From: Inhella gelatinilytica
GTDB taxonomy: Bacteria > Pseudomonadota > Gammaproteobacteria > Burkholderiales > Burkholderiaceae_C
DNA length: 64,000 nucleotides
Assembly: GCF_016093295.1 (NCBI RefSeq)
Contig: NZ_JAEDAL010000001.1
Location: forward strand, 620,001 to 684,000
Direction: 5' to 3'
Positions 7,187 to 31,765 of the stretch are shown one piece after another (positions within the stretch are counted from its first letter, which is position 1; every line of letters starts with the position of its first letter). Below the pieces are notes generated by a model. That model was not told the origin of the DNA. It searched no databases and was given only the letters and a program-made list of their open reading frames with translations. Both the position numbers and the translations under genes were made by a program.

Positions 7187-8194
7187 TCAATTCTGAACAT
7201 GGCTCAAGGCCTGCGCGGCGCCATCGAGCGCCGCCAACCCGTCGGTCACAACCGCCGTCGGGATGGCCGCCAGATAGCCTTGGCATCGACCCTTGGCCTC
7301 AAAACGCGCCCGGAAGGCCGAACGGTCCAAGCGGGCCCCCAGGCGCGGCACGATGCCGCCGCCGATGAACACCCCGCCGCGCGCCCCGAAACTCAAGGCC
7401 ACCGAACCCGCAAAACCGCCCAACATGGCGCAGAACACCTCCAGGGTGCGACTGGCGACGGCGTCCGACTCCTCAGCCCCCTCGCCCAGGCCGCGCTCGA
7501 CGATCCAGGGCGCATCCACCCCCACAGCCGCGCGCTGACCCTCGACCGCCGCCACCGCGGCGTACAGGGTCGGCAACCCCAAGCCCGACAACAGGCGCTC
7601 ACCGGACACGTGGGGGAACTCGCGCCGCACCACCCGCAGCAACTCGCTCTCATAGTCGTCAGCCGGCGCCAGCGTGGCATGCCCGCCCTCGCCCGCCACG
7701 GGCAACCACCCCCCAGGGACCGGCATCAGACCCGCCACGCCCAATCCCGTACCCGGCCCAATCACCGCCACCGGCACATCAAAGCGCGGCACACCCTCGC
7801 CCAGCGGGCGCCACTGCGCAGCGCGCAAGCGAGGCAAGGACAGCGCCAGGGCCTCAAAGTCATTCAGCACACACAACTGCCGCAGACCCAACACCGCCTG
7901 CAACTGCTGCTGCGAAAAGCTCCAGGGGTTGTTGCGGAACACCACCGCATCCCCCGTCACCGCCGTGGCCACCGCGATGGCGGCACTGCGCGGCGCCTCC
8001 ACCGGCCCAAGACCCCGCAAGTAGGCGCGAATGGCATCTTCCAGGCTGGCGTGGTCGGCCACAGCCAGCGTGCGCACCGCACTGAGCTCCTGCCCCGGCC
8101 CGGCGACCCAGGCGAAGCGGGCATTGCTGCCCCCCAGGTCAGCCAGCAACCAGGGGTAGGGCGCAATGGAGGCGGAATCGAACACAGGGGACAT
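7187..8194 (-). CDS. glk: Glucokinase (Glk family), stand-alone copy
   Basis: The 335-residue cytoplasmic sugar kinase phosphorylates glucose to glucose-6-phosphate with ATP. It shows the ATP-phosphate motif LLADLGGSNARFAWV near the N-terminus, VLNDFEALALSLPRL (the Asp is the presumed catalytic base), GPGTGLGVAGL and GEGGHATLAP. This is the Glk (PF02685) rather than the ROK signature. I start it at the ATG at 8194; an in-frame TTG at 8209 is possible and neither has a good ribosome site. A HexR-type box lies 42 bp upstream of this ATG. It is divergent from a second glucokinase fused to an RpiR regulator, so the locus has two glucokinase domains. The sequences differ clearly, so this is not a recent duplication. 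Confidence 0.9.
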   Translation of the reverse strand: MSPVFDSASIAPYPWLLADLGGSNARFAWVAGPGQELSAVRTLAVADHASLEDAIRAYLRGLGPVEAPRSAAIAVATAVTGDAVVFRNNPWSFSQQQLQAVLGLRQLCVLNDFEALALSLPRLRAAQWRPLGEGVPRFDVPVAVIGPGTGLGVAGLMPVPGGWLPVAGEGGHATLAPADDYESELLRVVRREFPHVSGERLLSGLGLPTLYAAVAAVEGQRAAVGVDAPWIVERGLGEGAEESDAVASRTLEVFCAMLGGFAGSVALSFGARGGVFIGGGIVPRLGARLDRSAFRARFEAKGRCQGYLAAIPTAVVTDGLAALDGAAQALSHVQN

Positions 8195-8236
8195 GGACGC
8201 GGCGCACAAATGGAGGGCAACTGCAAAGTCAAAACG

Positions 8237-8349: not shown

Positions 8350-8424
8350 CTTTGGGCAGAAAAACCCTGGGCGCGGAGCCGGGGAGTGCTTTGATAATCC
8401 GGACGCTGCTTCTTTGGTTTGCCC

Positions 8425-10320
8425 ATGTCCGCTCCCTTTGATCGCCCCCGTCTGCTGGCCGATGTCGGCGGCACCTTTGCCCGTTTCGCCCTGGAAACCG
8501 CGCCAGGCGTGTTGGAGCGTGCGGTGTCGCTGCGCTGCGCCGATCACGACGACTTCCACGCCGCGGTGCGCGCCTATCTGGATGCCCTGCCCCAGGACGT
8601 ACTGCCGCCCCAGCATGCGGCGGTGGCCATCGCCAACCCGGTCGAAGGCGATCAGGTGCGGATGACCAATTACCACTGGGAGTTCTCAATCGAGGCCATG
8701 CGCCAACGCCTGGGGCTGGACACCCTGGTCGTGGTGAATGACTTCACTGCCCTGGCCATGGCCTTGCCCCGCTTGGGCGGCGAACACCGTCAGGCCGTGG
8801 GCCAGGGGCAGGCCGTGCCCAACAGTGTGGTGGGGCTGCTGGGCTCGGGGACGGGCTTGGGGGTGTCCGGCTTGATTCCCTCCGGCGGCGGCTGGGTGGC
8901 TTTGGGCACTGAGGGGGGGCACACGAGCTTCTCGCCCCGGGATGAACGGGAAATCGCCATCCTGCGCTACGCCTGGCGCGAACACGCCCACGTCTCGTTT
9001 GAGCGCCTGTGCTCGGGGGCGGGCATGGCCCTGATTTACCGCGCCCTGGCCGACCTGCACGGGATCACGGCGCCGCCGCGGCAAGCCCCGGAGATCACCC
9101 AGGCCGCCCTGGAAGACGGTGACGCCTTGGCGCTGGAAACCCTGGAAGTGTTCTGTGCCTTGCTGGGCACGGCCGCGGGCAATTTGGCCGTGACCCTGGG
9201 GGCCACCGGCGGCATTTACATCGGCGGTGGCATCGTGCCGCGGCTGGGTGCGTACTTTGAGCGCTCGCCCTTCCGGCAGCGTTTTGAGGAGCGCGGGCGC
9301 TTCAGCCGCTATGTGGCGGCCATCCCCACCTACGTGATCACCGCAGAGGACGCGACCTTCCAGGGCGCCTCGGCCATCCTGGAGGCCCAGCTCAAGAAGC
9401 TGCACGGCAACGCGGACACGCTGCTGGCCCAGGTGCGCCGCGCCAAGGCGCAGCTCACGCCCGCCGAACAGCGCGTGGCCGAGCAGGTGCTGGCGCGCCC
9501 ACGCGCCCTGCTGACCGACCCGATCGGCGAAATTGCGCGGCTGGCCGGCGTCAGCCAGCCCACCGTCATTCGTTTCTGCCGCTCGCTGGGCAGCGAGGGC
9601 CTCTCCGACTTCAAACTGCGCTTGGCCTCCAGCCTCACCGGCACCGTGCCCGTCACCCACACCCAGGTGACGGTGGACGACAGCATGGTGGAGCTGGGCA
9701 GCAAGGTGCTGGGCAACACGGCTTCGGCCATCCTGCAGGTGCGCAACCAGCTCAACCGCGACACCATCGACCGCGCCACCGACTGCCTCACCCGCGCGCG
9801 CCGCATCGAGTGTTTTGGCAGCGGCCACTACGCGGTGGTGGCCCAGGATGCGCAGCTCAAATTCCTGCGCGTCGGCGTGCCCGCCAGCAGCCACACCGAG
9901 CCCCGCCTGCAGCACCTGGCCGCCCGCGTGCTGGGCCCCGGTGATGTGGCCCTGATCGTCAGCCCCGGTGGCCGCCTGCCCGAGCTGCTGGATGTGGCCG
10001 ACCAAGCGCGCCAGCGTGGTGCGAAGGTGGTCGCGATCACGGCCCACCAAAGCCCCTTGGCCCGCAAAGCGGACGTGGCACTGCTGGTGGAATCTGCCGA
10101 AGATCCGTCCATTCAACTCCCGATGGTGGGTCGCATCTTGCATTTGCTGGTGATTGACATCCTGGCTGTGGGCTTGGCCCTGCGCCGCGGTGCCCAGCCC
10201 GAGGCCCTGGACCCCCTGGACGAACCCGAAGCGCAGCCGGTGCGCGCCCGCCCAACGGCCCCGGGGGTCAGCCTGGCTGGGCCCATCGCGTCTTTGACAA
10301 CGCACAGCCACGAGCGATGA
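8425..10320 (+). CDS. Glucokinase fused to RpiR/HexR-type transcriptional regulator
   Basis: The 631-residue fusion has two parts. Residues 1 to about 325 are a Glk-type glucokinase (LLADVGGTFARFALE, VVNDFTALAMALPRL, GSGTGLGVSGLIPS, GTEGGHTSFSP). Residues from about 335 form an RpiR regulator. Its HTH has IGEIARLAGVSQPTVIRFCR near 365-384, and its SIS sugar-phosphate-binding domain runs from about 460 to 590 (CFGSGHYAVVAQDAQLKF, ALIVSPGGRLPEL). Fusions of this kind are known in Burkholderia relatives. RpiR/HexR proteins usually release DNA on binding a sugar phosphate such as KDPG. Three matching palindromes nearby are the inferred targets. The ATG at 8425 is preferred over an in-frame TTG six bases upstream. 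Confidence 0.92.
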   Translation: MSAPFDRPRLLADVGGTFARFALETAPGVLERAVSLRCADHDDFHAAVRAYLDALPQDVLPPQHAAVAIANPVEGDQVRMTNYHWEFSIEAMRQRLGLDTLVVVNDFTALAMALPRLGGEHRQAVGQGQAVPNSVVGLLGSGTGLGVSGLIPSGGGWVALGTEGGHTSFSPRDEREIAILRYAWREHAHVSFERLCSGAGMALIYRALADLHGITAPPRQAPEITQAALEDGDALALETLEVFCALLGTAAGNLAVTLGATGGIYIGGGIVPRLGAYFERSPFRQRFEERGRFSRYVAAIPTYVITAEDATFQGASAILEAQLKKLHGNADTLLAQVRRAKAQLTPAEQRVAEQVLARPRALLTDPIGEIARLAGVSQPTVIRFCRSLGSEGLSDFKLRLASSLTGTVPVTHTQVTVDDSMVELGSKVLGNTASAILQVRNQLNRDTIDRATDCLTRARRIECFGSGHYAVVAQDAQLKFLRVGVPASSHTEPRLQHLAARVLGPGDVALIVSPGGRLPELLDVADQARQRGAKVVAITAHQSPLARKADVALLVESAEDPSIQLPMVGRILHLLVIDILAVGLALRRGAQPEALDPLDEPEAQPVRARPTAPGVSLAGPIASLTTHSHER

Positions 10321-15025: not shown

Positions 15026-15805
15026 ATGCAAGCAAGGCACCAGCAAGGGGCGCCGCACATCGGCAGCGGCTCGCCGGGTTGGACCGCCAGCCCGGCGCTG
15101 CCGCATGTGCTCCAGCGCTGGGGCTTGCGCCTGCCGCTGCCGGCGCGAGGACCAGTCGGCCCGCAACTGGCGGAAGCCCTCTCCTGGCGCGATGCCGTCG
15201 CCCTGGCCCAAGTGCTCAAAACACCGTCGGCCGAACCGGCCCCCGACGCCGCCCACCGCCGGCTGGCAGCGCGCGAATGGGCCGAGGCCGCGCGGGAGCG
15301 CCTGGTGGCCGAGCTGCAAGCCGGGTTTGCCGACCCCGTGCTGGTGCAGGACGGCCCCGAAGCGCCGGCCCGCGCCGCCCAGGGGCTGGAGGCCGTTGCC
15401 CCCTTCAAGCTGCACCACAGCAGCCAGCAGCGCAGCATGGCCGCCCGCATGGCGACCCTGCGCGGGCGGCTGCGCACCCAGCTGGCGGGCACCACCCCGC
15501 GCTTGGCGCGACTGGCCCAGCTGGATGCCGTGTTCGAACCGGCTTGGGCCGCGCGCGAGCAGCCGGCCCTGGCGGGCCTGCCTTCCATGACGGTTCAGCG
15601 CGGCCTGCGGCTGCAGGCGGCGGCGCCGGAAGCCGCTCAGGACGCAAGGGCCTGGCCCCCCACCGGTTGGCGAGGCCAGCTCTGGACTGAATTGCAAGAC
15701 GTGCTGCACGCCGAGTTGGCCCTGCGCCTGCAACCCGTGCTCGGCCTGATCGAAGCCCTGCAGCACGACGACCCCTGCGGACCGATCCGCATTGAGACGC
15801 CATGA
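15026..15805 (+). CDS. DUF3348 family protein, first gene of motor-like operon
   Basis: The 259-residue protein is rich in Ala, Leu, Arg and Gln, with no signal peptide or membrane segment. It agrees with the DUF3348 family of betaproteobacteria. A central segment, VAPFKLHHSSQQRSMAARM, precedes helices RLRTQLAGTTPRLARLAQLD and a conserved-looking MTVQRGLRLQ. It ends overlapping the next gene by 4 bp (ATGA), so it is coupled to the MotA/TolQ-like protein. Because it precedes that gene and looks cytosolic, it may bind the motor's cytoplasmic tail or act in assembly. That role is inference. The start at 15026 is the first ATG and lacks a strong ribosome site. Confidence 0.8.
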   Translation: MQARHQQGAPHIGSGSPGWTASPALPHVLQRWGLRLPLPARGPVGPQLAEALSWRDAVALAQVLKTPSAEPAPDAAHRRLAAREWAEAARERLVAELQAGFADPVLVQDGPEAPARAAQGLEAVAPFKLHHSSQQRSMAARMATLRGRLRTQLAGTTPRLARLAQLDAVFEPAWAAREQPALAGLPSMTVQRGLRLQAAAPEAAQDARAWPPTGWRGQLWTELQDVLHAELALRLQPVLGLIEALQHDDPCGPIRIETP

Positions 15806-18177
15806 ACCGATTGCTGAACCTGCTCTTCCCTGCGGCCTTTGGGGCCGGCGTGGTGGCCCTGATCTGGGCCGCAACGGCGCAGCCCCAAGGCTTGGCCCTG
15901 GCCATGACGGGCTTGATTGCCGCGTTCTACAGCCTCGGTGCCTGGGAGTTGCGCGGCTACCGACGCGACAGCCAGGGCCTGGCGCACGCACTGGCTCATG
16001 CACTGGCCCACGCCCAGGGCGGCGGCGGCGATGCCGCTGAGACGTGGCTGACGCAGGCCCTGCCGGAGACCTTCCGCAGCAGCCTGCGCTTGCGCTTGGC
16101 CGGCCTGCCCGCGCCGCTGCCAGCCCCGGCCCTGGCGCCCGCGCTGGCCGCGCTCCTGGTGCTGCTGGGCATGCTGGGGACCTTCATCGGCCTGGTGCAG
16201 ACGCTGGGCGGCACGGCCCAAGCCCTGCGCGCGACGGCGGACCTGGTCGCCATGCGCGCGGCCCTGACCACGCCCGTGCAGGGCCTGGGCCTGGCCTTTG
16301 GCTGTTCCGTCGCGGGTGTGGCCAGCTCGGCCATGCTGGGCCTGATGGCCGCCCTGGCGCGGCGGGAACGCCTGGCCGTGGCGCAGCAGCTTGACACGGC
16401 CCTGGCCCACGGCCCGCTGCAGCCCTGGACCGCCGCCGCGCGCGAAGCGGCCCAGCAGGCGGCGCAGGCCCAGGAGCAGCTGCATGCCATGCTGAAGGTG
16501 CAGGAGGCCACCCAGGCGCGCCAGCAGCAGCGGGCCGAGGAGCACAGCGCCTTGATCGCCCAGCTGCGCGCCCTCGCCGACCAACAAGCCCGCGACCAGG
16601 CCGACTTCAAACGGCAGTTCAGCGCCGAATGGCTGGCCGAGCAGCAGCGCTTTCACACGTCGGCCGACCAGCGCTTTGGCGCCCTGGCCGCGGCGGTAGA
16701 GCACAGCCTGAGCAGCGCCCTGCAGCAAGCCCTGACGGCCAGCGCCCAGCACGCGGCTGACACCCTGCGCCCCGCCGTGCTGCAGACGCTGGATGCGCTC
16801 GGGGCTCAAGCCGCCCAAGTGCAGCACCAGTTGGCGGCGCAGTTGCAGCAGCAGCTCCAGGGGCTGGATCAGGCCTTGACGGCCAGTGCGGCCCGCGTGG
16901 AGCAAAGCCTCACGGCCAGCGCCGCGGGCCAGGCGCGCCAGCTGGAAGCGCAGGCGGCGCAGATGGCCACGCACACCCAGGCCTTGGCGGCGCAGGTGCA
17001 GCAGACCCTGGCGCAGCAGACCGAAGGCGCTCGCGAGCAGGCCCAGGCCCTGCAGACGGCGCTCACCCATGCGGCCCACACGGCCAGCCAGCAGCTCAGC
17101 ACCCAGGTTCAACACCACTGCGAGCAACTGAGCACCAGCGCGCTCACCGCCCAAGCCGCCCTGCGCGACGGCGCAGCCCAGGTGCAGGCCAGCCTGCAGG
17201 CCAGCACGGCGCAGCAGCAGGAGGCCCTGACCCACACCCTCGGACAGGCCCAGCACGCCTTGACGCAGGCCCTCGCGGACGTCGCCGCGCAATGGCGCGA
17301 AACCCAGGCCACCAGCCTGGCCCTCAGCCGCAGCGGCGCCGAACACATGGCCGTGCAGTTGCAGCAGCAGAGCGACAGCTTGCTCCAGCGCCTGGAGGCC
17401 CAGCAGCACGCGCTCCAAGCCCAGGCCGCCACCCACGATGGCGAGCGGCTTCAAGCCTGGGCCCAGGCCCTGGCCCAGCAAGGGGCCAGCCTGCAAGCGG
17501 CGTGGCAAGCCAGCAGCCAGGCCCTGCAAGACGCCCAGCAAGCGCAAAGCGAGGCAGTGGCCCGGACGGCGCAAACCGTCGTGGCCCAGGCCGAAGCCCA
17601 GGCGCGCCACACGGTGCAAGAGGTCAGTGCCCTGCTGCAACAGGCCGCTGAGGCCCCGCGCGCCGCGGCCGAGGTGGTCAGCAGCTTGCGCGAGCAGCTC
17701 TCGCGCAGCCTGGCGCAAGACACGGCGCAGCTGGCCGAACGGGCCGAGCTGATGCAAACCCTGCACACGCTCACCACCGCGCTGCAACAGGCCGCCGGCG
17801 AGCAGCGCCAGGCCATCGATCACCTGGTCCAAGGTGCGGCCACCCAGCTCGCCGCCCTGAGCGAGCGCTTCAGCCAGGACCTGGGCGCCACCCGCGAACA
17901 CCTCGCCGAGGCCAGCGTTCAACTGGCGGGCAGCGCCGCCGAGCTGGGCAGCTTGGGCGAGGGCTTTGCGGCCGCCGTCACGCAGTTCCAGGGCGTCAGC
18001 GAAACCTTGAGCGCGCAGCTGGCCCGCTTGCACGAGGGGCTGACACAGGCGCAGGCCCGCAGCGACGACCAATTGGCCTACACCGTGGCCCAGGCGCGCG
18101 AGCTGATCGAGCTCTGCCTGCTCCAGCAAAAGCAGGTGCTGGACGCGCTGCAGGGCGCCGCCGCAGAGGGGGCTTAA
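15802..18177 (+). CDS. DUF802 protein: MotA/TolQ/ExbB-like stator with ~600-residue coiled-coil tail
   Basis: The 791-residue protein has four predicted membrane segments (about residues 8-25, 31-50, 111-134 and 158-185). The third contains LLGMLGTFIGLVQTLGG, the MotA/TolQ/ExbB signature. The fourth follows ALTTPVQGLGLAFG, which corresponds to the pore-lining TolQ/ExbB segment. From about 190 to the end the protein is an Ala/Gln/Leu-rich, cysteine-poor helical tail, predicted as extended coiled coil with DUF802-type repeats. The layout (membrane stator plus long cytoplasmic tail, followed by a MotB/OmpA-like gene) mirrors ZorA of the Zorya defence system. It overlaps the upstream gene by 4 bp and the next starts 3 bp after its stop. 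An ion-driven motor is inferred; the output is unknown. Confidence 0.85.
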   Translation: MNRLLNLLFPAAFGAGVVALIWAATAQPQGLALAMTGLIAAFYSLGAWELRGYRRDSQGLAHALAHALAHAQGGGGDAAETWLTQALPETFRSSLRLRLAGLPAPLPAPALAPALAALLVLLGMLGTFIGLVQTLGGTAQALRATADLVAMRAALTTPVQGLGLAFGCSVAGVASSAMLGLMAALARRERLAVAQQLDTALAHGPLQPWTAAAREAAQQAAQAQEQLHAMLKVQEATQARQQQRAEEHSALIAQLRALADQQARDQADFKRQFSAEWLAEQQRFHTSADQRFGALAAAVEHSLSSALQQALTASAQHAADTLRPAVLQTLDALGAQAAQVQHQLAAQLQQQLQGLDQALTASAARVEQSLTASAAGQARQLEAQAAQMATHTQALAAQVQQTLAQQTEGAREQAQALQTALTHAAHTASQQLSTQVQHHCEQLSTSALTAQAALRDGAAQVQASLQASTAQQQEALTHTLGQAQHALTQALADVAAQWRETQATSLALSRSGAEHMAVQLQQQSDSLLQRLEAQQHALQAQAATHDGERLQAWAQALAQQGASLQAAWQASSQALQDAQQAQSEAVARTAQTVVAQAEAQARHTVQEVSALLQQAAEAPRAAAEVVSSLREQLSRSLAQDTAQLAERAELMQTLHTLTTALQQAAGEQRQAIDHLVQGAATQLAALSERFSQDLGATREHLAEASVQLAGSAAELGSLGEGFAAAVTQFQGVSETLSAQLARLHEGLTQAQARSDDQLAYTVAQARELIELCLLQQKQVLDALQGAAAEGA

Positions 18178-18180
18178 GCC

Positions 18181-18894
18181 GTGGCCCTGGACCTGCTCAG
18201 CGACGACAGCAGCGGCGGCCAACCCGCCTCGGTCTGGGCGGCTTTTGCCGACCTGATGGTGGGCGTGCTCGGCGCCTTTGTGCTGATCTTGGCCCTGGCC
18301 TTGGTCACCCAAATGGACCTGGCCAGCCGGCTCGAAGAAGAAACCCGCCAGCGCCAGCTCGAAGCCCAGCGGCGCGAGCTCTTGGAGCGCGCCCTGGCCG
18401 GCCCCCTGGCGAGCGGCTTGATCCAGCTGAATGAAGGCCGCATCGGCATCAGCGGCAATGTGCTGTTCGCGCCCGGCTCGGACCAGTTGCACACCGAGGG
18501 GCGCGCGCTTTTGCGCAGCCTGGCCGAACCGCTGGCCGGCTATTTGGCGGCCCGCGACGAGGTGCTGATGGTCAGCGGCTTCACCGACGACCGGCCGGTG
18601 CGCAGCGGCAATGGCCGGTATGCCGACAACTGGGAACTCTCGGCCTTGCGAGCCCTCACCGTCACCCGTACCCTGCTGGCCGATGGCCTGCCGTCCGGCG
18701 CGGTGTTTGCGGCCGCTTTCGGGCCGGAACAACCCGTGGCCTCGAACGACGACGCGGCCGGCCGGGCGCTGAATCGCCGCGTGGAGTTGGCGCCGATGCC
18801 CAAGCGGGCCCGCGCCGAAAGCGGCCGTGCCGGCGAGACCGCGGCATCGGGCGTCGCCCCTGGTGCGGCCGCCCGCGCCGCCTCCACCCCTTGA
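18181..18894 (+). CDS. OmpA/MotB-like peptidoglycan-binding stator partner
   Basis: The 237-residue protein starts at a GTG 3 bp after the previous stop. A single N-terminal membrane helix (about residues 20-42) begins with FADLMVGV. Its Asp24 sits where MotB and ZorB carry the proton-binding Asp. A charged coiled coil follows, then an OmpA-like domain from about 80 to 205 (GNVLFAPGSDQLHTEG, VSGFTDDRPV, ELSALRALTVTR, LNRRVEL). OmpA domains of this type anchor to peptidoglycan in the periplasm. Together with the upstream DUF802 protein it makes a MotA5-MotB2-like stator by analogy. The C-terminus (after 205) is Ala/Arg-rich and probably disordered. Confidence 0.88.
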   Translation: MALDLLSDDSSGGQPASVWAAFADLMVGVLGAFVLILALALVTQMDLASRLEEETRQRQLEAQRRELLERALAGPLASGLIQLNEGRIGISGNVLFAPGSDQLHTEGRALLRSLAEPLAGYLAARDEVLMVSGFTDDRPVRSGNGRYADNWELSALRALTVTRTLLADGLPSGAVFAAAFGPEQPVASNDDAAGRALNRRVELAPMPKRARAESGRAGETAASGVAPGAAARAASTP

Positions 18895-19511
18895 GCGCTC
18901 AGCCGCCCGCCATGGAACTGGATCTGGACGCCCTGCACGCTGAACTGGCCCCGGCCCCCGCCGCGCACCGGGCCCGCCTGTTGGGCTTGGCGCAGCGCGC
19001 CGCCGCCGCGCCCGCCGGGAGCACCTTGCAGGCCTGGCTGGTTCGGCGGCTCACCGCGCTGCGACAAATGCCCCCGCCGGTGCCCGTGGCCGCAGTTCCG
19101 CCTGTCGTGCCGGTGCCCACCGCGCGCGCCCATCCGCTGGCCGCCCTGCGCGCTGCCCTGCCGCAGCGCGACCCCGCTGCCGAGCCCCTGGTGCTGCAGA
19201 CCGACCGGCGCCGCTGGACCCGCCTGCGCCTTGCGCAGCGCCTGCAAGCGCCGGCCCCCCCGGCCGCCGACGCCCCGCAACTCGGCCCGCTGCACGCGCA
19301 AGTGCTGGTGCCCGCCGCGCTGGCCGAACTCGCCGCCCTATCGCCCGAGTACCTCGCCCGGCTGCTGGCGCAATGGGATCAACTGGCCGCACTGGGCAGT
19401 GACATCGCGCCCGAGGCGCCTAGGGCGCCCAAAGCGGCCCGCAGCCCGACCCGGAAGCCTGCAGCCTCCAGCCCGTCCTCCAGCAAACCCACCCGCAAAC
19501 CCACCCGCTGA
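18891..19511 (+). CDS. DUF2894 family protein, last gene of motor-like operon
   Basis: The 206-residue protein overlaps the OmpA-like gene by 4 bp (TTGA; TTG start at 18891). A downstream in-frame ATG at 18912 is an alternative. It shows DUF2894 features: an N-terminal helical segment (MELDLDALHAELA), a Pro-rich linker near 70-90, a conserved-looking RRRWTRLRLAQRL region, and LSPEYLARLLAQWDQLAAL near the end. The tail is Lys/Ser/Pro-rich (KPAASSPSSSKPTRKPTR), likely disordered. No signal or membrane helix is seen. Its fixed position after a MotA/MotB-like pair suggests a cytoplasmic partner. Function is unknown. Confidence 0.8.
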   Translation: MSAQPPAMELDLDALHAELAPAPAAHRARLLGLAQRAAAAPAGSTLQAWLVRRLTALRQMPPPVPVAAVPPVVPVPTARAHPLAALRAALPQRDPAAEPLVLQTDRRRWTRLRLAQRLQAPAPPAADAPQLGPLHAQVLVPAALAELAALSPEYLARLLAQWDQLAALGSDIAPEAPRAPKAARSPTRKPAASSPSSSKPTRKPTR

Positions 19512-21002: not shown

Positions 21003-21965
21003 TCAGCGTCGGGCCGCCAGCCGGTCCAGCATGCCCACGATGGCCTGCTGCTGCGGCCCTTCGCGGCCGGCAAAACGGGCGTCGGCATAGCCCCACCAGT
21101 CCCAACAGCCATTGACGGCGCCCGTGCCCGTCTGCGGGTAGAGCACCACCAGCCGGTTGGCCGCCGCCCAGGCGTTGAGGCCGCTGCCGCGGGCAAAGGC
21201 GTCGCCCACCGCCGCCCCATTCATGCGGCAACCGTGCAGGGCCACGTGGACGCGACAGCCCCCCGCCTCGCAAGCGCTGGGAATGAAGAGGTAGCCGGTG
21301 TCCGCCAGATCGGCGCCCGCGTGGAAGGGGCGCTGGTCAAAGGCCAGCAAGCGGCCGGATGCCCCTTCTGTGGGCGCCTGCAGCGGCCCCAGAAGGTGTT
21401 GCAGCAGGCTGCCGGCCAGGTCAAAGCCACAGGCCAGCAGGTAGGGCGGCTGCATCTGGTCGCAAGCACTGCCCGTGCCCACGGTCACCCAGCCATGGCC
21501 GGCGGGCACCTGGGTCTGCACCTGCAGGGCCAACTCGGGCCGCAGGCCTTGCAACTGGGTGGCCAAAGCCGCCGTGGTGCGGGGCGCCACGACCGCATCC
21601 TTGGCCCCCGCAAACAAATAGGCCCGCCCCTGGCGCGGCTGGGCGGGCAGCGCGCCCGCCGTGATCGCCGCTTGCGCGCGCTGCGCCAGCGTGGCCTCGT
21701 CCAGCGCCTGGCGGCCGAGGCAGGGCCCCAGGGCCTCAAACACGGATTGCGCACAGGCATAGGGCCCGCCGGCCACCGTGGCCAGCCCGCCCTCAAACCG
21801 CGGCGCCTGCGCCAGCCACAACTGCACCGCCATGTAGGCCCCCGACGAGACGCCCGACACCGAAGCCGGGCCTTCGGTCTGCAGGGCCGGCAGGGGCGCG
21901 CGGTCCTGCGCCTGGGCGGTCAGGCTGAAGCCCAGTAGCAACAGGGCGAGAAGGGGGCGAATCAT
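21003..21965 (-). CDS. Secreted PHA/PHB depolymerase-like esterase (type 2 catalytic domain)
   Basis: The 320-residue protein begins with a signal peptide (LLALLLLGFSLTAQA, cleavage near residue 19). A lipase-type box GVSSG follows almost at once (Ser40). An early box is characteristic of type 2 extracellular short-chain-length PHA depolymerases. Later segments FIPSACEAGGCRVHVALHGC, ANRLVVLYPQTG and NGCWDWWGY match the family's oxyanion and C-terminal signatures. Several Cys probably form disulfides. It ends after the catalytic domain, without a substrate-binding domain, so activity on insoluble polymer is uncertain. It is divergent from dinG, with 52 bp between the two starts. Confidence 0.82.
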   Translation of the reverse strand: MIRPLLALLLLGFSLTAQAQDRAPLPALQTEGPASVSGVSSGAYMAVQLWLAQAPRFEGGLATVAGGPYACAQSVFEALGPCLGRQALDEATLAQRAQAAITAGALPAQPRQGRAYLFAGAKDAVVAPRTTAALATQLQGLRPELALQVQTQVPAGHGWVTVGTGSACDQMQPPYLLACGFDLAGSLLQHLLGPLQAPTEGASGRLLAFDQRPFHAGADLADTGYLFIPSACEAGGCRVHVALHGCRMNGAAVGDAFARGSGLNAWAAANRLVVLYPQTGTGAVNGCWDWWGYADARFAGREGPQQQAIVGMLDRLAARR

Positions 21966-22017
21966 GGCGGCTCCGCGAATTGGCGCAGGGCATTTCAGCA
22001 CAGACAATCCGCCCCCC

Positions 22018-24174
22018 ATGCCCGCGCTCCCCGACCTCCCCGACGAACTCGAAGCCCTGTACGAGACCCTGCTGGGCACGGCTGCGGGCTCGGTGGCGCG
22101 GGCCGGGCAGCGCGAGATGCTGCACGCCATCGGCGCGCACCTGGCCGATGCCAAGTTCGAGCCCGACGTGGAGCCGCGCGTCTGCGTGGTGGAAGCCGGC
22201 ACGGGCGTGGGCAAGACGCGGGCCTACCTGGCCGCCGGCATCACGCTCGCCCGACGCGCCAGCGTGAAGCTGGTGGTCTCCACCTCCACCATCGCGCTGC
22301 AAGAGCAGGTGTTGAACAAAGACCTGCCCGAGCTGGCGCGGGCGCTGGAGGTGCCGCCCACCATCGCCCTGCTCAAGGGCCGCGGGCGCTACCTGTGCCC
22401 CGTCAAGCTGGACCAAGCCTGCAGCGGCGAGCAGACCCCCATGACGCTGGAAGACGGCAGTGCCCTGCAGGCCCCGCCGCTGGAGCGCTTTCAGGCCCTG
22501 GCCACGCGCTGGGCCAGTGGCAGTTGGAACGGCGAGCGCGACAGCCTGGGCCCCGAGGACCTGAAGCTGTGGAGCCACCTGGCGGCCGACCGCCACGCCT
22601 GCACCAGCCGCCACTGCCCGCAGTTCAACCACTGCCCTTACTTCGACGCCAAGCGCGCCGCCAGCCGCGCCGACATCCTGGTGGCCAACCACGACCTGGT
22701 GCTGGCCAGCCTGCGCTCGGATGCCTCCGCCCTGCCCAATGGCGAGCGCGCGATTTACATCTTCGACGAAGCCCATCACCTGCCCGCGACGGCGCTTTCG
22801 CACTTCGCCTGTGAAGCGTCTTTGAGCGACCGCCGCTGGCTGCAGCGGCTGGACAAGGCGCTGGATCAGGCGGCGCGCAGCCTGCGCTACCCGCTGCCCC
22901 TGGAGGGCAGCACCAGCCTCTTGAACCAGAGCCTGGACGACCTGCTGCGCGGCGTGATGGCCACTCAGGGCAACGAGGCCATCGGCCAATTGCACGAAGC
23001 GGCCGAGGCGGCCGAATCCAAGGACCTGGGAGCGGCTTCGGCCCCCGGCCAGCCCAGCACGCGCATCCGCTTCCCACAAGGTGTGCTGCCGGACGAGCTG
23101 GTGCCGCTGTGGCAGGCCGTGGAGCAGCAGGCGCAGCGCCTGCACGCCAAGGCCACGGAGCTGAGCGCGTGGATGAAGGAACTGCGCGGCGAGGACGAGG
23201 CCCTGGCCCCGGTCATCGCCCTGCACGTCACCGAGATCGGCGGGCCGTTCAAGCGCCTGAGCGACCTGCTGGAGACCGCAGAGCTGATGCTGGACAACGG
23301 CGACCCGCCCGCCGCCAAGTGGCTGGACTTCAGCGTGGGGGGCGGCAGCCTGCGCGTGGTGGCGCGCGCCTGCCCGCTCTTCGCCAGCGGGGTGCTGCGG
23401 CGCGAGCTGTGGCCGCGCATGAGCGCCGTGGTGCTGACCTCGGCCACGCTGCGCGCCCTGGGCAACTTCGACTTCTTCCTGCGCGACAGCGGCCTGCACG
23501 GCCGCCCGCATGTGCAGGCCCTCAGCGTGGCCAGCCCCTTCAACTACGCCGCCCAGGGTCGCTTCACCGTGGTGCAAACGCGCGCCAGCCCCAAGCAGCC
23601 TGCCGAGCACAACGCCGAGGTGGCACGACTCCTGGCCGAGGACCTGAAGCAAGTCGAGGCCGGCGCGCTCCTGCTGTGCGCCAGTTGGGCGCAACTGCAC
23701 ACGCTGATGGCGGCCCTGCCGGCCAGCCTCAAACGCCAATGCAAAGTGCAGGGCGAACTGGCCCGGGAGACCCAGCTGCGCGAGCACCGCGCGGCCGTGG
23801 AGCGTGGCGAGCGCAGCATCCTCGTGGGCCTGCAAAGCTTCGGTGAGGGCTTGGACCTGCCCGGCAGCTTGTGCGAGTGGGTCTTCATGCCCAAGCTGCC
23901 CTTCATGACGCCGGACGACCCGGTGCAGGAGGCCCGTGCCGAGTGGCTGGACGGCCACGGCCGCAGCAGCTTTGTGGAACTGGTCGTGCCCGCCACCGGC
24001 GTGCGCCTGAACCAGTGGGCCGGCCGCGGCATCCGCAGCGAGGCCGACCACGCCCACATCGTCTGCTACGACCCCCGCCTGGCCACCACGCCCTTCGGCA
24101 AACAACTGATGGCCGGCCTTCCCGGCTTCACCAAGGTGCTGCGGCGGGCGGATGGGAGTGAGCAGGCGCTCTAA
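22018..24174 (+). CDS. dinG: ATP-dependent DNA helicase DinG (XPD-like, Fe-S)
   Basis: The 718-residue SF2 helicase has Walker A VEAGTGVGKT at 58-67 and DEAH at 250-253. Four cysteines at 127, 195, 200 and 206 have the spacing of the E. coli DinG 4Fe-4S site. The helicase C motifs include VLTSATLRALG, LVGLQSFGEGLDLPG, and LNQWAGRGIRSEADHA. DinG unwinds 5'-to-3' on forks, D-loops and R-loops, helping to resolve replication-transcription conflicts. I use the ATG at 22018 because the family-like sequence starts there; an in-frame ATG at 21964 lies inside the divergent gene's start. No LexA box is evident upstream. Confidence 0.93.
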   Translation: MPALPDLPDELEALYETLLGTAAGSVARAGQREMLHAIGAHLADAKFEPDVEPRVCVVEAGTGVGKTRAYLAAGITLARRASVKLVVSTSTIALQEQVLNKDLPELARALEVPPTIALLKGRGRYLCPVKLDQACSGEQTPMTLEDGSALQAPPLERFQALATRWASGSWNGERDSLGPEDLKLWSHLAADRHACTSRHCPQFNHCPYFDAKRAASRADILVANHDLVLASLRSDASALPNGERAIYIFDEAHHLPATALSHFACEASLSDRRWLQRLDKALDQAARSLRYPLPLEGSTSLLNQSLDDLLRGVMATQGNEAIGQLHEAAEAAESKDLGAASAPGQPSTRIRFPQGVLPDELVPLWQAVEQQAQRLHAKATELSAWMKELRGEDEALAPVIALHVTEIGGPFKRLSDLLETAELMLDNGDPPAAKWLDFSVGGGSLRVVARACPLFASGVLRRELWPRMSAVVLTSATLRALGNFDFFLRDSGLHGRPHVQALSVASPFNYAAQGRFTVVQTRASPKQPAEHNAEVARLLAEDLKQVEAGALLLCASWAQLHTLMAALPASLKRQCKVQGELARETQLREHRAAVERGERSILVGLQSFGEGLDLPGSLCEWVFMPKLPFMTPDDPVQEARAEWLDGHGRSSFVELVVPATGVRLNQWAGRGIRSEADHAHIVCYDPRLATTPFGKQLMAGLPGFTKVLRRADGSEQAL

Positions 24175-29143: not shown

Positions 29144-31678
29144 TCAGGCACTCTTTTTGGCCGCCGTCTTGCGCGGGGCCCTCGGCGCACGGGGTTCGAA
29201 CTCAAAGTTCACCTTGCCCGCCTTGGCATCCCAGACGAGTTTGGCTTTGAACTTGCGTCGCGTGCGGTTGGAAACAAAGTTTTCCAAGAAGTCGGTCCCC
29301 CCCTCGTGCAGCAACTTGCCCATCTGCGTGGGCTCGATGGGCTGCGTCAGGATGATCTTGCCACTCTTGAAGTCACAAGTGACATGCTGACCGACCGAAT
29401 GCTCGCACACATAGTTGCTGCCGTGTTCGTAAACGTGGCCCTTGCACTTGGGGCAGGCGCCCAGGGCCGTCTGGGCACTGAAATCCACCGGCGTGCCGTC
29501 GTCTTGGCTCTTGTCATCACCAAAGTCGAACTCGAGGCGCCAGTTTTTGATCTCCTCGTCAAAGATCAGTTGCAGCTCGGCCGTGAACGGGCGCCCCATG
29601 CGTGAGCGGAAGCCTTCGAGCGGGCCGATGTGCTTGTCCTGGATGAACTGTTCCACCTCGGCCAGCTCAAAGCTGCGTCCGCCCGGGATCTTGGTGATGG
29701 AGAACTCACAGGCCGTACACGCAAAGCGACGGTAGTTTTCCTTCACCACGCCGCCACAGTTCGGGCAGGGCGTGGTGAGGGTGGCGTAGTCGCCCGGGAT
29801 GGTGTCGCGGTCGTAGCTCTTGGCCTTGGCCACCACCCGCTCGGCCATCTTGGCAATGGCCGCCATGAAGTCTTCGCGGCTGAGCTTGCCCTTCTCCATT
29901 TGTGAGAGCTCGTACTCCCACTGGCCGGTGAGCTCGGGCTGGGTCAGTTCCTCCACCTCCAGGCCGCGCAAGAGCGTCATGAGCTGGAAGGCCTTGGCGG
30001 TGGGGATGAGGTCGCGCCCCTCGCGCAGCATGTATTTCTCGGTCAGCAGGCCTTCGATGATGCTGGCGCGCGTCGCCGGCGTCCCCAGGCCACGCTCGGC
30101 CATGGCATCGCGGAGCTCATCGTCGTCCACCAGCTTGCCCGCGCCTTCCATCGCGGCCAGCAAGGTGGCTTCGTTGTAACGCGCCGGGGGCTTGGTTTGC
30201 AGGCCCTTGACGTCCACCGACTCGGTGCGCACTTTCTCGCCCGCACGCACCGCCGTGAGCAGGGCTTCGTCGTCTTGGGCTTCTTTGCCGAACACCGCCT
30301 GCCAACCCGGATTGACCAACACCTTGCCCGTGGTTTGGAAGCTGTGCAGCCCGACCTGCGAAATGCGCGTGGTGACTTGGTACTCGGCCGGCGGAAAGAA
30401 CACGGCGAGGAAGCGCTTGACCACCAACTCGTAGAGCTTGGCCTCGGCCTCGCTCAAACTGCCTGGCGCTTGCAGCGTGGGGATGATGGCAAAGTGGTCG
30501 CTGACCTTGCTGTTGTCAAAGACCTTCTTGGTGGGTTTGATCCAGCCGTTCTTCAGCAGCGTGGCGGCGTGCACGCCCAGACCGGCGGGGTTGGCATCGC
30601 GCAGCATCTCGGCCGTTTGCTGGGCCACCTGCAGGTAGTCCTCCGGCAAATGGCGGCTGTCGGTCCGCGGGTAGGTCAGGGCCTTGTGTTTTTCGTAGAG
30701 CGCCTGCGCCAGGGCCAGCGTGGTTTTGGCCGAGAAACCAAAGCGCCCGTTGGCTTCGCGCTGCAGGCTGGTCAGGTCGAACAGGCCCGGGCTGGCTTGG
30801 GTGGTGGGTTTGCTCTCTTCCGTCACCGTGGCGGGCTGGCCCTTGACGGCCGCCGCGATGGACTCGGCCATGGTGCGGTTCCAGAGCCGGTCGGCCCGCG
30901 CATCCCCGTCCTCGCCCTTCTTGAAGTGGGGGTCGATCCACTTGCCTTCGTATTGGCCGGCGATGGCATCGAAGGTGGCGCGCACCTCCCAGTAGTCGCG
31001 GGCCACGTGCTTGCGGATTTTTTCTTCGCGCTCCACCACGATAGAGAGCGTCGGCGTTTGCACCCGGCCCACGGTGGTGAGGAAGAAGCCACCGTCGCGC
31101 GAATTGAAGGCCGTCATGGCGCGCGTGCCGTTGATGCCCACCAGCCAATCGGCCTCGGAGCGGCAGCGGGCGGCGTCGGCCAGCGGCAGCAGTTCCGCAT
31201 CCGAGCGCAGCTTGGAAAAACCCTGACGGATGGCTTCGGGCGTCATGCTCTGCAGCCACAGCCGCTGCACAGACTTTTCAAACTTGCCGCGTGCGGGTTG
31301 CGCGTACTGCACGATCAAGCGAAAGATCAGCTCCCCTTCGCGGCCCGCGTCACAGGCGTTGATCAAGGTGTCGACGTCTTTGCGGCGAATCAGCTTGACC
31401 AGCGCATTGAGCCGGCTCTTGCTCTTGTCGATGGGCTGCAGGTCAAAGTGCGACGGAATCACCGGCAGGTTGGCAAAGCTCCACTTGCCGCGCTTGGGGT
31501 CCACGCCCTCCGGCGCGGCGATCTCCACCAAGTGACCCACGGCGGACGACACGATGTAACGCTCGTTCTCGTGGAACTCATCGTGCTTCTCAAATTTGCC
31601 CGACACGGGCGTCAGGGCCCGCACGATGTCCAGCGCAACAGAAGGCTTCTCGGCAATGACCAGGGTTTTTAACGTCAT
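29144..31678 (-). CDS. topB: DNA topoisomerase III
   Basis: The 844-residue type IA topoisomerase has the TOPRIM domain at the N-terminus (LVIAEKPSVA; DAGREGE at 110-116) and the catalytic Tyr in LTYPRTDSRHLP (Tyr336). A C-terminal CPNC...CTAC zinc ribbon precedes a second Cys-containing repeat (CPKCKGHVYE), and the tail is Lys-rich. It decatenates single-stranded regions and works with RecQ-type helicases. The ATG at 31678 begins the conserved N-terminus. It is divergent from the SET gene, and the gap holds a long alternating purine-pyrimidine tract. Confidence 0.95.
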   Translation of the reverse strand: MTLKTLVIAEKPSVALDIVRALTPVSGKFEKHDEFHENERYIVSSAVGHLVEIAAPEGVDPKRGKWSFANLPVIPSHFDLQPIDKSKSRLNALVKLIRRKDVDTLINACDAGREGELIFRLIVQYAQPARGKFEKSVQRLWLQSMTPEAIRQGFSKLRSDAELLPLADAARCRSEADWLVGINGTRAMTAFNSRDGGFFLTTVGRVQTPTLSIVVEREEKIRKHVARDYWEVRATFDAIAGQYEGKWIDPHFKKGEDGDARADRLWNRTMAESIAAAVKGQPATVTEESKPTTQASPGLFDLTSLQREANGRFGFSAKTTLALAQALYEKHKALTYPRTDSRHLPEDYLQVAQQTAEMLRDANPAGLGVHAATLLKNGWIKPTKKVFDNSKVSDHFAIIPTLQAPGSLSEAEAKLYELVVKRFLAVFFPPAEYQVTTRISQVGLHSFQTTGKVLVNPGWQAVFGKEAQDDEALLTAVRAGEKVRTESVDVKGLQTKPPARYNEATLLAAMEGAGKLVDDDELRDAMAERGLGTPATRASIIEGLLTEKYMLREGRDLIPTAKAFQLMTLLRGLEVEELTQPELTGQWEYELSQMEKGKLSREDFMAAIAKMAERVVAKAKSYDRDTIPGDYATLTTPCPNCGGVVKENYRRFACTACEFSITKIPGGRSFELAEVEQFIQDKHIGPLEGFRSRMGRPFTAELQLIFDEEIKNWRLEFDFGDDKSQDDGTPVDFSAQTALGACPKCKGHVYEHGSNYVCEHSVGQHVTCDFKSGKIILTQPIEPTQMGKLLHEGGTDFLENFVSNRTRRKFKAKLVWDAKAGKVNFEFEPRAPRAPRKTAAKKSA

Positions 31679-31726
31679 GGATTCTTCTTGGGTGATCAAA
31701 AGGCGGGTGCACAATGCGCGCCGCCT

Positions 31727-31765
31727 CGCGTACGCGCGCACCCACACGTATGTGCACGCGCGCGC
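31727..31765. repeat. Alternating purine-pyrimidine tract (Z-DNA candidate)
   Basis: Bases 31727-31741 and 31743-31765 are two perfectly alternating purine-pyrimidine runs of 15 and 23 bases, separated by one out-of-phase C. They are made mostly of CG, CA and TG steps, the best B-to-Z formers. The tract lies in the 99-bp gap between divergent topB and the SET gene. Confidence 0.6.

What the first reader, a model, noticed from the sequence alone, without database searches (positions are those of the whole stretch)
15026..19511. ZorAB-like membrane motor operon with DUF3348 and DUF2894 partners and no Zorya effectors
Four genes are packed with overlaps of 4 bp or a 3-bp gap: DUF3348, DUF802 (MotA/TolQ/ExbB-like), an OmpA/MotB-like protein and DUF2894. 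The second and third have the layout of ZorA (stator plus long cytoplasmic tail) and ZorB (helix with Asp plus OmpA domain). ZorC, ZorD and ZorE are absent. Stator-type protein pairs power flagella, TonB, Tol and Zorya; here the output is not known. The two outer DUF proteins look cytosolic and may be sensors, regulators or the effector. This is the strongest candidate for an undescribed ion-driven system in the window.
Basis: partly seen in the sequence, partly recalled or inferred. Interest (0 to 1): 0.85.

Follow-up and report, generated by a model that had tools for sequence, protein, structure and literature searches.

The report
Zorya type III phage-defence motor operon
These four genes are a member of an already described bacterial anti-phage system, type III Zorya, a cell-wall-anchored membrane motor with two helper proteins whose job is still unknown, so the locus is not a new kind of machine but adds clues to how this poorly studied version is built and kept.

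Summary
The four genes are real, intact and in one operon, but the system is not undescribed. It is Zorya type III, named by PADLOC in 2021, where the cloned Stenotrophomonas nitritireducens operon protected E. coli from phage. All four window proteins match PADLOC's type III models; I fetched that very operon (L130), and identities run from 35% (DUF2894) to 62% (ZorB). The DUF802 label is off: it is a tail repeat in relatives, absent here. The four genes stay together wherever contigs allow a judgement; no fifth gene is conserved; the two outer proteins model as all-helical, with no nuclease fold found. Possibly new details: tandem tail units that keep the coiled-coil register, a conserved distal tail, a basic DUF2894 tail, and presence in 59 of 61 Stenotrophomonas species (ZorB marker) at several sites. 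What type III does after the motor turns remains open.

The parts
15026..15805 (+). DUF3348 protein, 259 aa (called ZorG3 in PADLOC-DB, ZorF in the 2021 paper's text)
   Evidence: PF11828 E 5e-37; PADLOC ZorG3 E 1.3e-43; AlphaFold2 model all-helical, pLDDT 87, pTM 0.81
15802..18177 (+). ZorA3, 791 aa: membrane core plus long coiled-coil tail
   Evidence: PADLOC ZorA3 E 1.1e-165 over residues 2-788; family core profile matches solved type I ZorA 8VVN, E 1e-6
16141..16197 (+). ZorA core helix, residues 114-132, GMLGTF motif
   Evidence: hydropathy peak; lies in the stretch 111-186 aligned to 8VVN 142-215
16303..16359 (+). ZorA core helix, residues 168-186, with invariant Ser169 and Ser176
   Evidence: hydropathy peak; both serines in 74 of 74; aligned to 8VVN
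16447..18174 (+). ZorA cytoplasmic tail, residues 216-791, hendecad-like coiled coil
   Evidence: hydrophobic period 3.66; power 20.9 at 11/3 versus 0.1 at 3.5; 0 of 300 shuffles as strong
17515..18174 (+). conserved distal part of the ZorA tail (last 220 residues); proposed docking region
   Evidence: mean pairwise identity in 74 proteins 0.603 (residues -220 to -110) and 0.576 (last 110) versus 0.337 for mid-tail
18181..18894 (+). ZorB3, 237 aa: one transmembrane helix plus OmpA peptidoglycan-binding domain
   Evidence: PADLOC ZorB3 E 5.4e-96; NCBIfam NF006547 E 6.7e-94; OmpA E 2.2e-15
18250..18252 (+). codon of ZorB Asp24, proposed ion-carrying residue
   Evidence: invariant in 30 of 30 aligned ZorB; same number as the critical Asp24 of type I ZorB (PMC11890865)
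18463..18777 (+). OmpA domain of ZorB, residues 95-199
   Evidence: Pfam OmpA, best stretch 95-199
18891..19511 (+). DUF2894 protein, 206 aa from TTG or 199 aa from ATG 18912 (called ZorF3 in PADLOC-DB, ZorG in the 2021 paper's text)
   Evidence: PADLOC ZorF3 E 6.7e-13; PF11445 23.1 bits, below cut-off
19449..19508 (+). basic C-terminal tail of the DUF2894 protein, net charge +6 in the last 20 residues
   Evidence: net charge +3 or more in 69 of 73 relatives

Best explanation
The operon is a Zorya type III anti-phage system. Five ZorA and two ZorB subunits form an ion-driven motor in the inner membrane, anchored to peptidoglycan by the OmpA domain of ZorB. The ZorA tails bundle into a long rod whose conserved distal part holds the DUF3348 protein (a helical bundle, probably an adaptor) and the DUF2894 protein (two small helical parts and a basic tail). 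Phage entry disturbs the envelope, ion flow turns the rod, and the DUF2894/DUF3348 pair is released or switched to act near the incoming DNA, most likely by binding DNA or by recruiting a host enzyme, since no nuclease was recognised in the cassette. Shown here: gene content, co-conservation, core homology, Asp24, tail periodicity, conserved distal tail, helical models. Shown in print for a relative: phage protection by the cloned type III system; for types I and II, the 5:2 complex and the need for Asp, tail and peptidoglycan binding. Inferred: everything about what the distal tail and the two outer proteins do, and stoichiometry and rotation in type III.
For: All four PADLOC type III models match. 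The operon tested in print was fetched as L130 = NZ_LDJG01000021.1, same gene order; identities to the window: DUF3348 81 of 226, ZorA 307 of 753, ZorB 135 of 217, DUF2894 60 of 170 aligned residues. Co-occurrence: of 120 family genomes DUF3348 in 30, DUF2894 in 31, ZorB3 in 31, ZorA3 at E below 1e-60 in 31, the same genomes but for G102, whose contig starts inside ZorA. Of 80 loci found by ZorB, 75 hold all four in order; the other five are cut by contig ends. ZorA core profile matches 8VVN at 1e-6. Asp24 invariant in 30 of 30. No fifth gene conserved in 73 loci of 34 genus labels. Tail period; distal tail and basic DUF2894 end. Published: PMC8565338, PMC11890865.
Against: I know of no phage assay of this operon. 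DUF2894 here is divergent, under the Pfam cut-off. The cassette is kept rather steadily for a defence system: DUF3348 in 6 of 6 genomes of its own genus, ZorB3 in 59 of 61 Stenotrophomonas species, Zor divergence tracking SelO divergence (r 0.84 and 0.85), no phage record and 26 of 72,556 plasmid records, which leaves room for a second, non-defence role. It does not sit in a defence island here. The DUF2894 model has pTM 0.37. Docking on the tail was not modelled. In B. cenocepacia only the first one or two Zorya III genes changed on infection (PMC12584637, passage).
Confidence: 0.85

Rival explanations
1. The operon is a steadily inherited envelope motor with a housekeeping or stress role in certain proteobacteria, and phage protection in E. 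coli is a side effect of one over-expressed copy.
For: DUF3348 in 6 of 6 genomes of the own genus; ZorB3 in 59 of 61 Stenotrophomonas species, one copy each, with all four genes in 20 of 20 fetched; on the ZorA-ZorB tree Lysobacterales and Rhodocyclales each need 1 change, Burkholderiales 2; Zor and SelO divergence correlate, r 0.84-0.85; 0 of 50,697 phage records; type III Zorya is listed as a highly conserved system (at least 90% of genomes) in Ralstonia solanacearum (PMC13064858, passages).
Against: Patchy at higher rank: 10 of 276 genomes of the class, 31 of 120 of the family, 7 of 11 in another genus; PADLOC's authors also report patchy spread. Location is not kept: neighbours shared in 3 of 190 genus pairs versus 171 of 190 for SelO; 8 site groups in 20 Stenotrophomonas versus 1 for SelO. 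On the tree Lysobacterales lie inside Burkholderiales, and Stenotrophomonas does not stay together. Published plaque and culture protection.
Confidence: 0.15
2. The cassette is a Zorya motor whose real effector is a nuclease encoded elsewhere in the host; the two outer proteins are only recruiters.
For: In type II ZorAB recruits the nickase ZorE to the membrane, and type I ZorD carries a nuclease-like domain (PMC11890865, passages); DUF3348 and DUF2894 models are all-helical and had no PDB match at E 0.001 in Foldseek; no fifth gene is conserved beside the cassette.
Against: The cloned system worked in a foreign host, E. coli BL21-AI, so the enzyme would have to be one that E. coli also has. 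Not directly tested here.
Confidence: 0.3
3. One reading: an undescribed ion-driven system, only superficially like Zorya.
For: No effector model of Zorya types I and II was matched by the window's 43 called proteins.
Against: The gene set equals the published definition of Zorya type III and all four type III models match.
Confidence: 0.02

Closest known systems
Zorya type III (PADLOC 2021; S. nitritireducens DSM 12575 operon, L130)
   Same: Same four families in the same order and strand: DUF3348, ZorA, ZorB, DUF2894; same core and OmpA layout
   Different: Distant member: 36% identity in DUF3348, 41% in ZorA, 62% in ZorB, 35% in DUF2894; no DUF802 repeats in the tail; it shares with a Pelomonas/Roseateles group a long branch of 0.77 changes per column
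Zorya types I and II (ZorABCD, ZorABE)
   Same: ZorA core aligns with type I ZorA 8VVN; Asp in the ZorB helix; OmpA-type domain; long ZorA tail
   Different: No ZorC, ZorD or ZorE model matched in 43 called window proteins; two all-helical partner proteins instead
MotAB, TolQR, ExbBD stators
   Same: Membrane core and single Asp-bearing helix of the partner subunit; OmpA-type domain as in MotB
   Different: No Pfam MotA_ExbB hit is listed for the window ZorA at E 10, and it has a tail of 576 residues; no flagellar, Tol or Ton partner genes in the operon

Membership tests
Zorya type III | ZorA with MotA/TolQ/ExbB-type core and long tail | tested here: met
   PADLOC ZorA3 E 1.1e-165; profile match to 8VVN E 1e-6; tail periodicity
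Zorya type III | ZorB with transmembrane Asp and OmpA domain | tested here: met
   PADLOC ZorB3 E 5.4e-96; Asp24 invariant in 30 of 30; OmpA E 2.2e-15
Zorya type III | DUF3348 gene beside ZorAB | tested here: met
   PF11828 E 5e-37; PADLOC E 1.3e-43
Zorya type III | DUF2894 gene beside ZorAB | tested here: met
   PADLOC E 6.7e-13; Pfam 23.1 bits against a cut-off of 25, 26.7 with neighbours in the frame; same place in the operon as in relatives
Zorya type III | Four genes together as one unit | tested here: met
Zorya type III | Protects against phage | not testable with these tools
   Shown in print for L130's operon (PMC8565338); I know of no assay of this one
Zorya type III | 5:2 ion-driven complex | not testable with these tools
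   Known for types I and II (PMC11890865); no chain named as type III among the matches
Zorya type I | ZorC and ZorD genes | tested here: not met
   No such model among the 19 PADLOC families matched by 43 called window proteins at E 1e-10
Zorya type II | ZorE gene | tested here: not met
   No such model among the 19 PADLOC families matched by 43 called window proteins at E 1e-10
DUF802 proteins (PF05650) | DUF802 repeat | tested here: not met
   No hit in the window ZorA at E 10; hits in the tails of L103, L114, L130, L131, L134
MotA_ExbB (PF01618) | Match over the curated cut-off | tested here: not met
   No hit in the window protein at E 10; sub-threshold hits in L103, L114, L130 and L131

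The most novel reading that the evidence does not exclude
Type III Zorya is a stator motor without a nuclease effector: rotation of a register-locked coiled-coil rod mechanically switches a helical DUF3348/DUF2894 pair on its conserved distal part, whose basic tail then acts on DNA by binding rather than cutting; and in some genera it has become a near-core, constantly kept part of the cell rather than a come-and-go defence gene set.
Probability: 0.25. Interest if true: 0.7.

Novelty: new member of a known kind. Interest (0 to 1): 0.3.

Why it matters
In print, type II Zorya turns its motor towards recruiting a DNA-nicking protein and type I carries a nuclease-like ZorD; type III has the same motor but no nuclease that I could recognise, so it is the natural place to learn what the motor itself contributes. 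The details found here (conserved distal tail, in-register tail units, basic DUF2894 end, presence in nearly all Stenotrophomonas species sampled) turn that into concrete tests. The locus itself is one more member of a known system.

Tried and rejected
Undescribed system: rejected, the gene set is the published Zorya type III. DUF802 as the stator domain: rejected. Fifth gene as hidden effector: of flanking families in 73 loci and 34 genus labels (labels set by me from record titles) only one reached four or more labels (6), at scattered distances on both sides. Defence island: not seen; in 43 called window proteins PADLOC otherwise gave only a DinG helicase, a subtilase and a topoisomerase cross-hit. 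Known fold for the outer proteins: sequence profiles found nothing credible (best E 0.006, a type III export protein, for DUF2894); Foldseek gave no match at E 0.001; VIA-align gave Z 8.3 at best for DUF3348, to generic helical bundles such as designed proteins and MxA stalks, which for helical bundles may mean only a common arrangement; DUF2894 was not given a VIA look. Type I ZorA tail as comparison: the search of 185 class genomes found none, and no control rang, so nothing follows. Promoters and terminators: none found by consensus. DNA repeats: only short imperfect ones in the window operon. The Nature 2025 Zorya structure paper is not held; nothing is taken from it.

Rows dropped: seven of 80 loci (L068, L077, L080, L081, L093, L123, L144) left out of length, tree and conservation counts because contigs are cut or the gene is broken; G057 and G102 of the family draw were counted from search tables but their regions were not fetched; L039 is a 5-kb contig with a cut DUF3348 gene only. 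In the count of 75 of 80, L093 and L123 hold a partial last gene. The five others: L077, L080 and L081 start inside ZorA; L068 starts inside DUF3348 and its ZorA is broken into two frames; L144 ends just after ZorB, and its short DUF2894 hit lies inside ZorB and is not counted. E-values of my own HMMs are inflated because the models were built from the same family; start codons were chosen by rule.
Full report
Observation. The last gene may start at TTG 18891 or ATG 18912. Pfam names the first as DUF3348 (E 5e-37), the third as OmpA (2.2e-15), and the fourth weakly as DUF2894 (23.1 bits, cut-off 25). The second has no DUF802 hit at E 10; in five of five relatives scanned (L103, L114, L130, L131, L134) DUF802 is a 53-residue module, two to five copies, in the cytoplasmic tail. 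So the name DUF802 belongs to relatives and to the tail, not to the stator core.

Identity. PADLOC models give ZorG3 1.3e-43, ZorA3 1.1e-165, ZorB3 5.4e-96 and ZorF3 6.7e-13 for the four genes in order. The PADLOC paper (PMC8565338; [quoted passage not shown] nitritireducens DSM 12575 operon in E. coli BL21-AI. The Nat Commun 2025 paper (PMC11890865; passages, outline and part 1 of section 6) repeats the definition. The 2021 text calls DUF3348 ZorF and DUF2894 ZorG; PADLOC-DB 2.0 has the names the other way round, so I give the DUF each time.

Comparison with the tested operon. My ZorB-profile search of genome contigs (best 80 of 552 relatives kept) returned NZ_LDJG01000021.1 itself as L130. 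Identities to the window: DUF3348 81 of 226, ZorA 307 of 753, ZorB 135 of 217, DUF2894 60 of 170 aligned residues. Same order, same strand.

Co-conservation. In 120 genomes of the family (119 genera): DUF3348 in 30, DUF2894 in 31, ZorB3 at E 1e-40 in 31, ZorA3 at E below 1e-60 in 31 (at E 0.001 the ZorA3 search rang in 55 genomes, the extra ones at 5.8e-9 or weaker). They are the same genomes; the one mismatch, G102, has a contig that starts inside ZorA. In fetched stretches the order DUF3348-ZorA-ZorB-DUF2894 on one strand holds in 31 of 32 loci, the 32nd being a 5-kb contig with a cut DUF3348 gene, and in the window. Of 80 loci found by ZorB, 75 hold all four in order; three contigs start inside ZorA, one starts inside DUF3348 and has a frame-broken ZorA, and one ends just after ZorB. 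No fifth gene is conserved beside them in 73 loci of 34 genus labels, within about 4-5 kb upstream and 7 kb downstream at most.

Anatomy. The profile of 53 ZorA cores (A5) matches one solved chain credibly, type I ZorA 8VVN, E 1e-6; the next is at 0.18 (window sequence alone E 0.018). ZorB Asp24 is invariant in 30 of 30, the number of the critical Asp of type I ZorB. In the core, Thr127, Ser169 and Ser176 are invariant in 74 of 74. ZorA length varies from 595 to 1229 residues in 73 loci while ZorB stays at 211-247.

The tail. The window tail has a hydrophobic period of 3.66 residues (power 20.9 at 11/3, 0.1 at 3.5; 0 of 300 shuffles as strong), and 48 of 73 relatives peak at 3.66: a hendecad-like coiled coil. 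In 19 of 104 ZorA proteins (window not among them) the tail holds tandem units at 50% identity or more (count of proteins). The nine distinct unit lengths (40, 51, 62, 69, 80, 84, 87, 94, 131) lie near whole multiples of 3.635 residues, mean distance 0.052 of a turn, 94 fitting worst; 0 of 5000 random draws did as well with the period re-fitted in each. Lengthening keeps the coil in register. Any continuous coiled coil would favour this, so it speaks for a continuous rod, not for torque. The window's own tail has no strong unit (best offset 84 at 24% identity). Identity is 0.337 in mid-tail, 0.449 in the first 110 tail residues, 0.603 and 0.576 in the last two blocks of 110, and 0.601 in the membrane core. 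The distal 220 residues are therefore a candidate docking region. The words coiled and hendecad do not occur in the main text of PMC11890865, and the listing held nothing on such units.

The outer proteins. DUF3348: AlphaFold2 with 65 sequences, pLDDT 87, pTM 0.81, all helices, long ones from residue 75 to 247; no Foldseek match at E 0.001; VIA-align Z 8.3 at best, generic helical bundles. DUF2894: pLDDT 76, pTM 0.37, all helices, no match at E 0.001. Its last 20 residues carry net charge +3 or more in 69 of 73 relatives, against 0 of 73 for DUF3348, 0 of 73 for ZorA and 43 of 73 for ZorB, so a basic end alone is not unique to it. No nuclease fold was found; this does not prove absence of catalysis.

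Spread. ZorB3 in 10 of 276 genomes of the class, 31 of 120 of the family, 7 of 11 of another genus, and 59 of 61 Stenotrophomonas species, one match each (genus identified because L168 contains a 6-kb stretch of S. maltophilia D457, and all four genes are in 20 of 20 stretches fetched); DUF3348 in 6 of 6 genomes of the own genus. Across 20 genera, flanking genes are shared in 3 of 190 pairs, against 171 of 190 for the control gene SelO in the same genomes. Across 20 Stenotrophomonas the cassette stands in 8 site groups (7, 6, 2 and five single), SelO in one. Yet ZorB and DUF3348 divergence track SelO divergence (r 0.84 and 0.85), which I read as mostly parent-to-offspring inheritance with changes of place in this genus; no formal test against transfer was made. 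The ZorA-ZorB tree (quick, 74 rows, 6 in no group) keeps Lysobacterales (support 99) and Rhodocyclales (93) together, but both lie inside Burkholderiales as drawn, and Stenotrophomonas itself is split, so some transfer is likely. In the window's own genus the site looks partly kept: SelO-like and DnaJ-like neighbours in L038, a DinG-like one in L037, and the gene at window 21003-22214 (no Pfam hit) in L036 and L040. One control gene was used, and thresholds differ. Phage records: 0 of 50,697; plasmids: 26 of 72,556, 7 of them predicted mobilizable, the 15 listed all 0.9 Mb or larger (one DUF3348 query from L103; the window's own gave 25 plasmid records). PADLOC's authors describe the genus-level spread of the systems as patchy. 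The Nat Commun paper already names Stenotrophomonas among the genera in which Zorya III is more frequent, and a 2026 paper lists type III Zorya as highly conserved in Ralstonia solanacearum (PMC13064858, passages). I saw no figure for Stenotrophomonas species in the listings or the passages read; supplements were not read.

Mechanism and verdict. From types I and II (PMC11890865) the pair is expected to be a 5:2 ion-driven complex fixed to peptidoglycan, needing Asp, tail and peptidoglycan binding; in type II it draws its effector to the membrane on infection. For type III I propose that the distal tail holds DUF3348 and DUF2894 and that DUF2894's basic end meets DNA; these steps are inferred. 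The finding is a good member of a known system with an open output. Interest 0.3.

Noticed in passing
window 7187-8209 (-) and 8419-10320 (+): Two divergent glucokinase genes side by side, the second fused to an RpiR-type HTH and SIS domain.
   Followed up: no
window 29144-31747 (-): A bacterial DNA topoisomerase (Pfam Topoisom_bac E 4.5e-114) matches the PADLOC model DpdF at 2.7e-109 over about its first 450 of 1499 positions, a likely false-positive trap of that model.
   Followed up: partly
window 21964-24174 (+): DinG-type helicase matches PADLOC typeIV_DinG at 1.2e-109; no other Cas model was among the matches of the 43 called window proteins, so probably the ordinary chromosomal DinG.
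   Followed up: partly
G057 contig C307 34629-34757: A second, C-terminal fragment match to DUF2894 outside the operon.
   Followed up: no
control genome: Corynebacterium glutamicum rings for DUF2894 over the cut-off; chance or a true relative was not checked.
   Followed up: no
L061 (genome G056): In another genus the cassette also stands within about 2 kb of SelO, as SelO lies near it in the window.
   Followed up: no
L068, 1-2321: A Zorya III locus whose ZorA reads in two frames, a broken gene or a sequencing error.
   Followed up: partly
literature versus PADLOC-DB: The names ZorF and ZorG for DUF3348 and DUF2894 are swapped between the 2021 paper's text and PADLOC-DB 2.0.
   Followed up: yes
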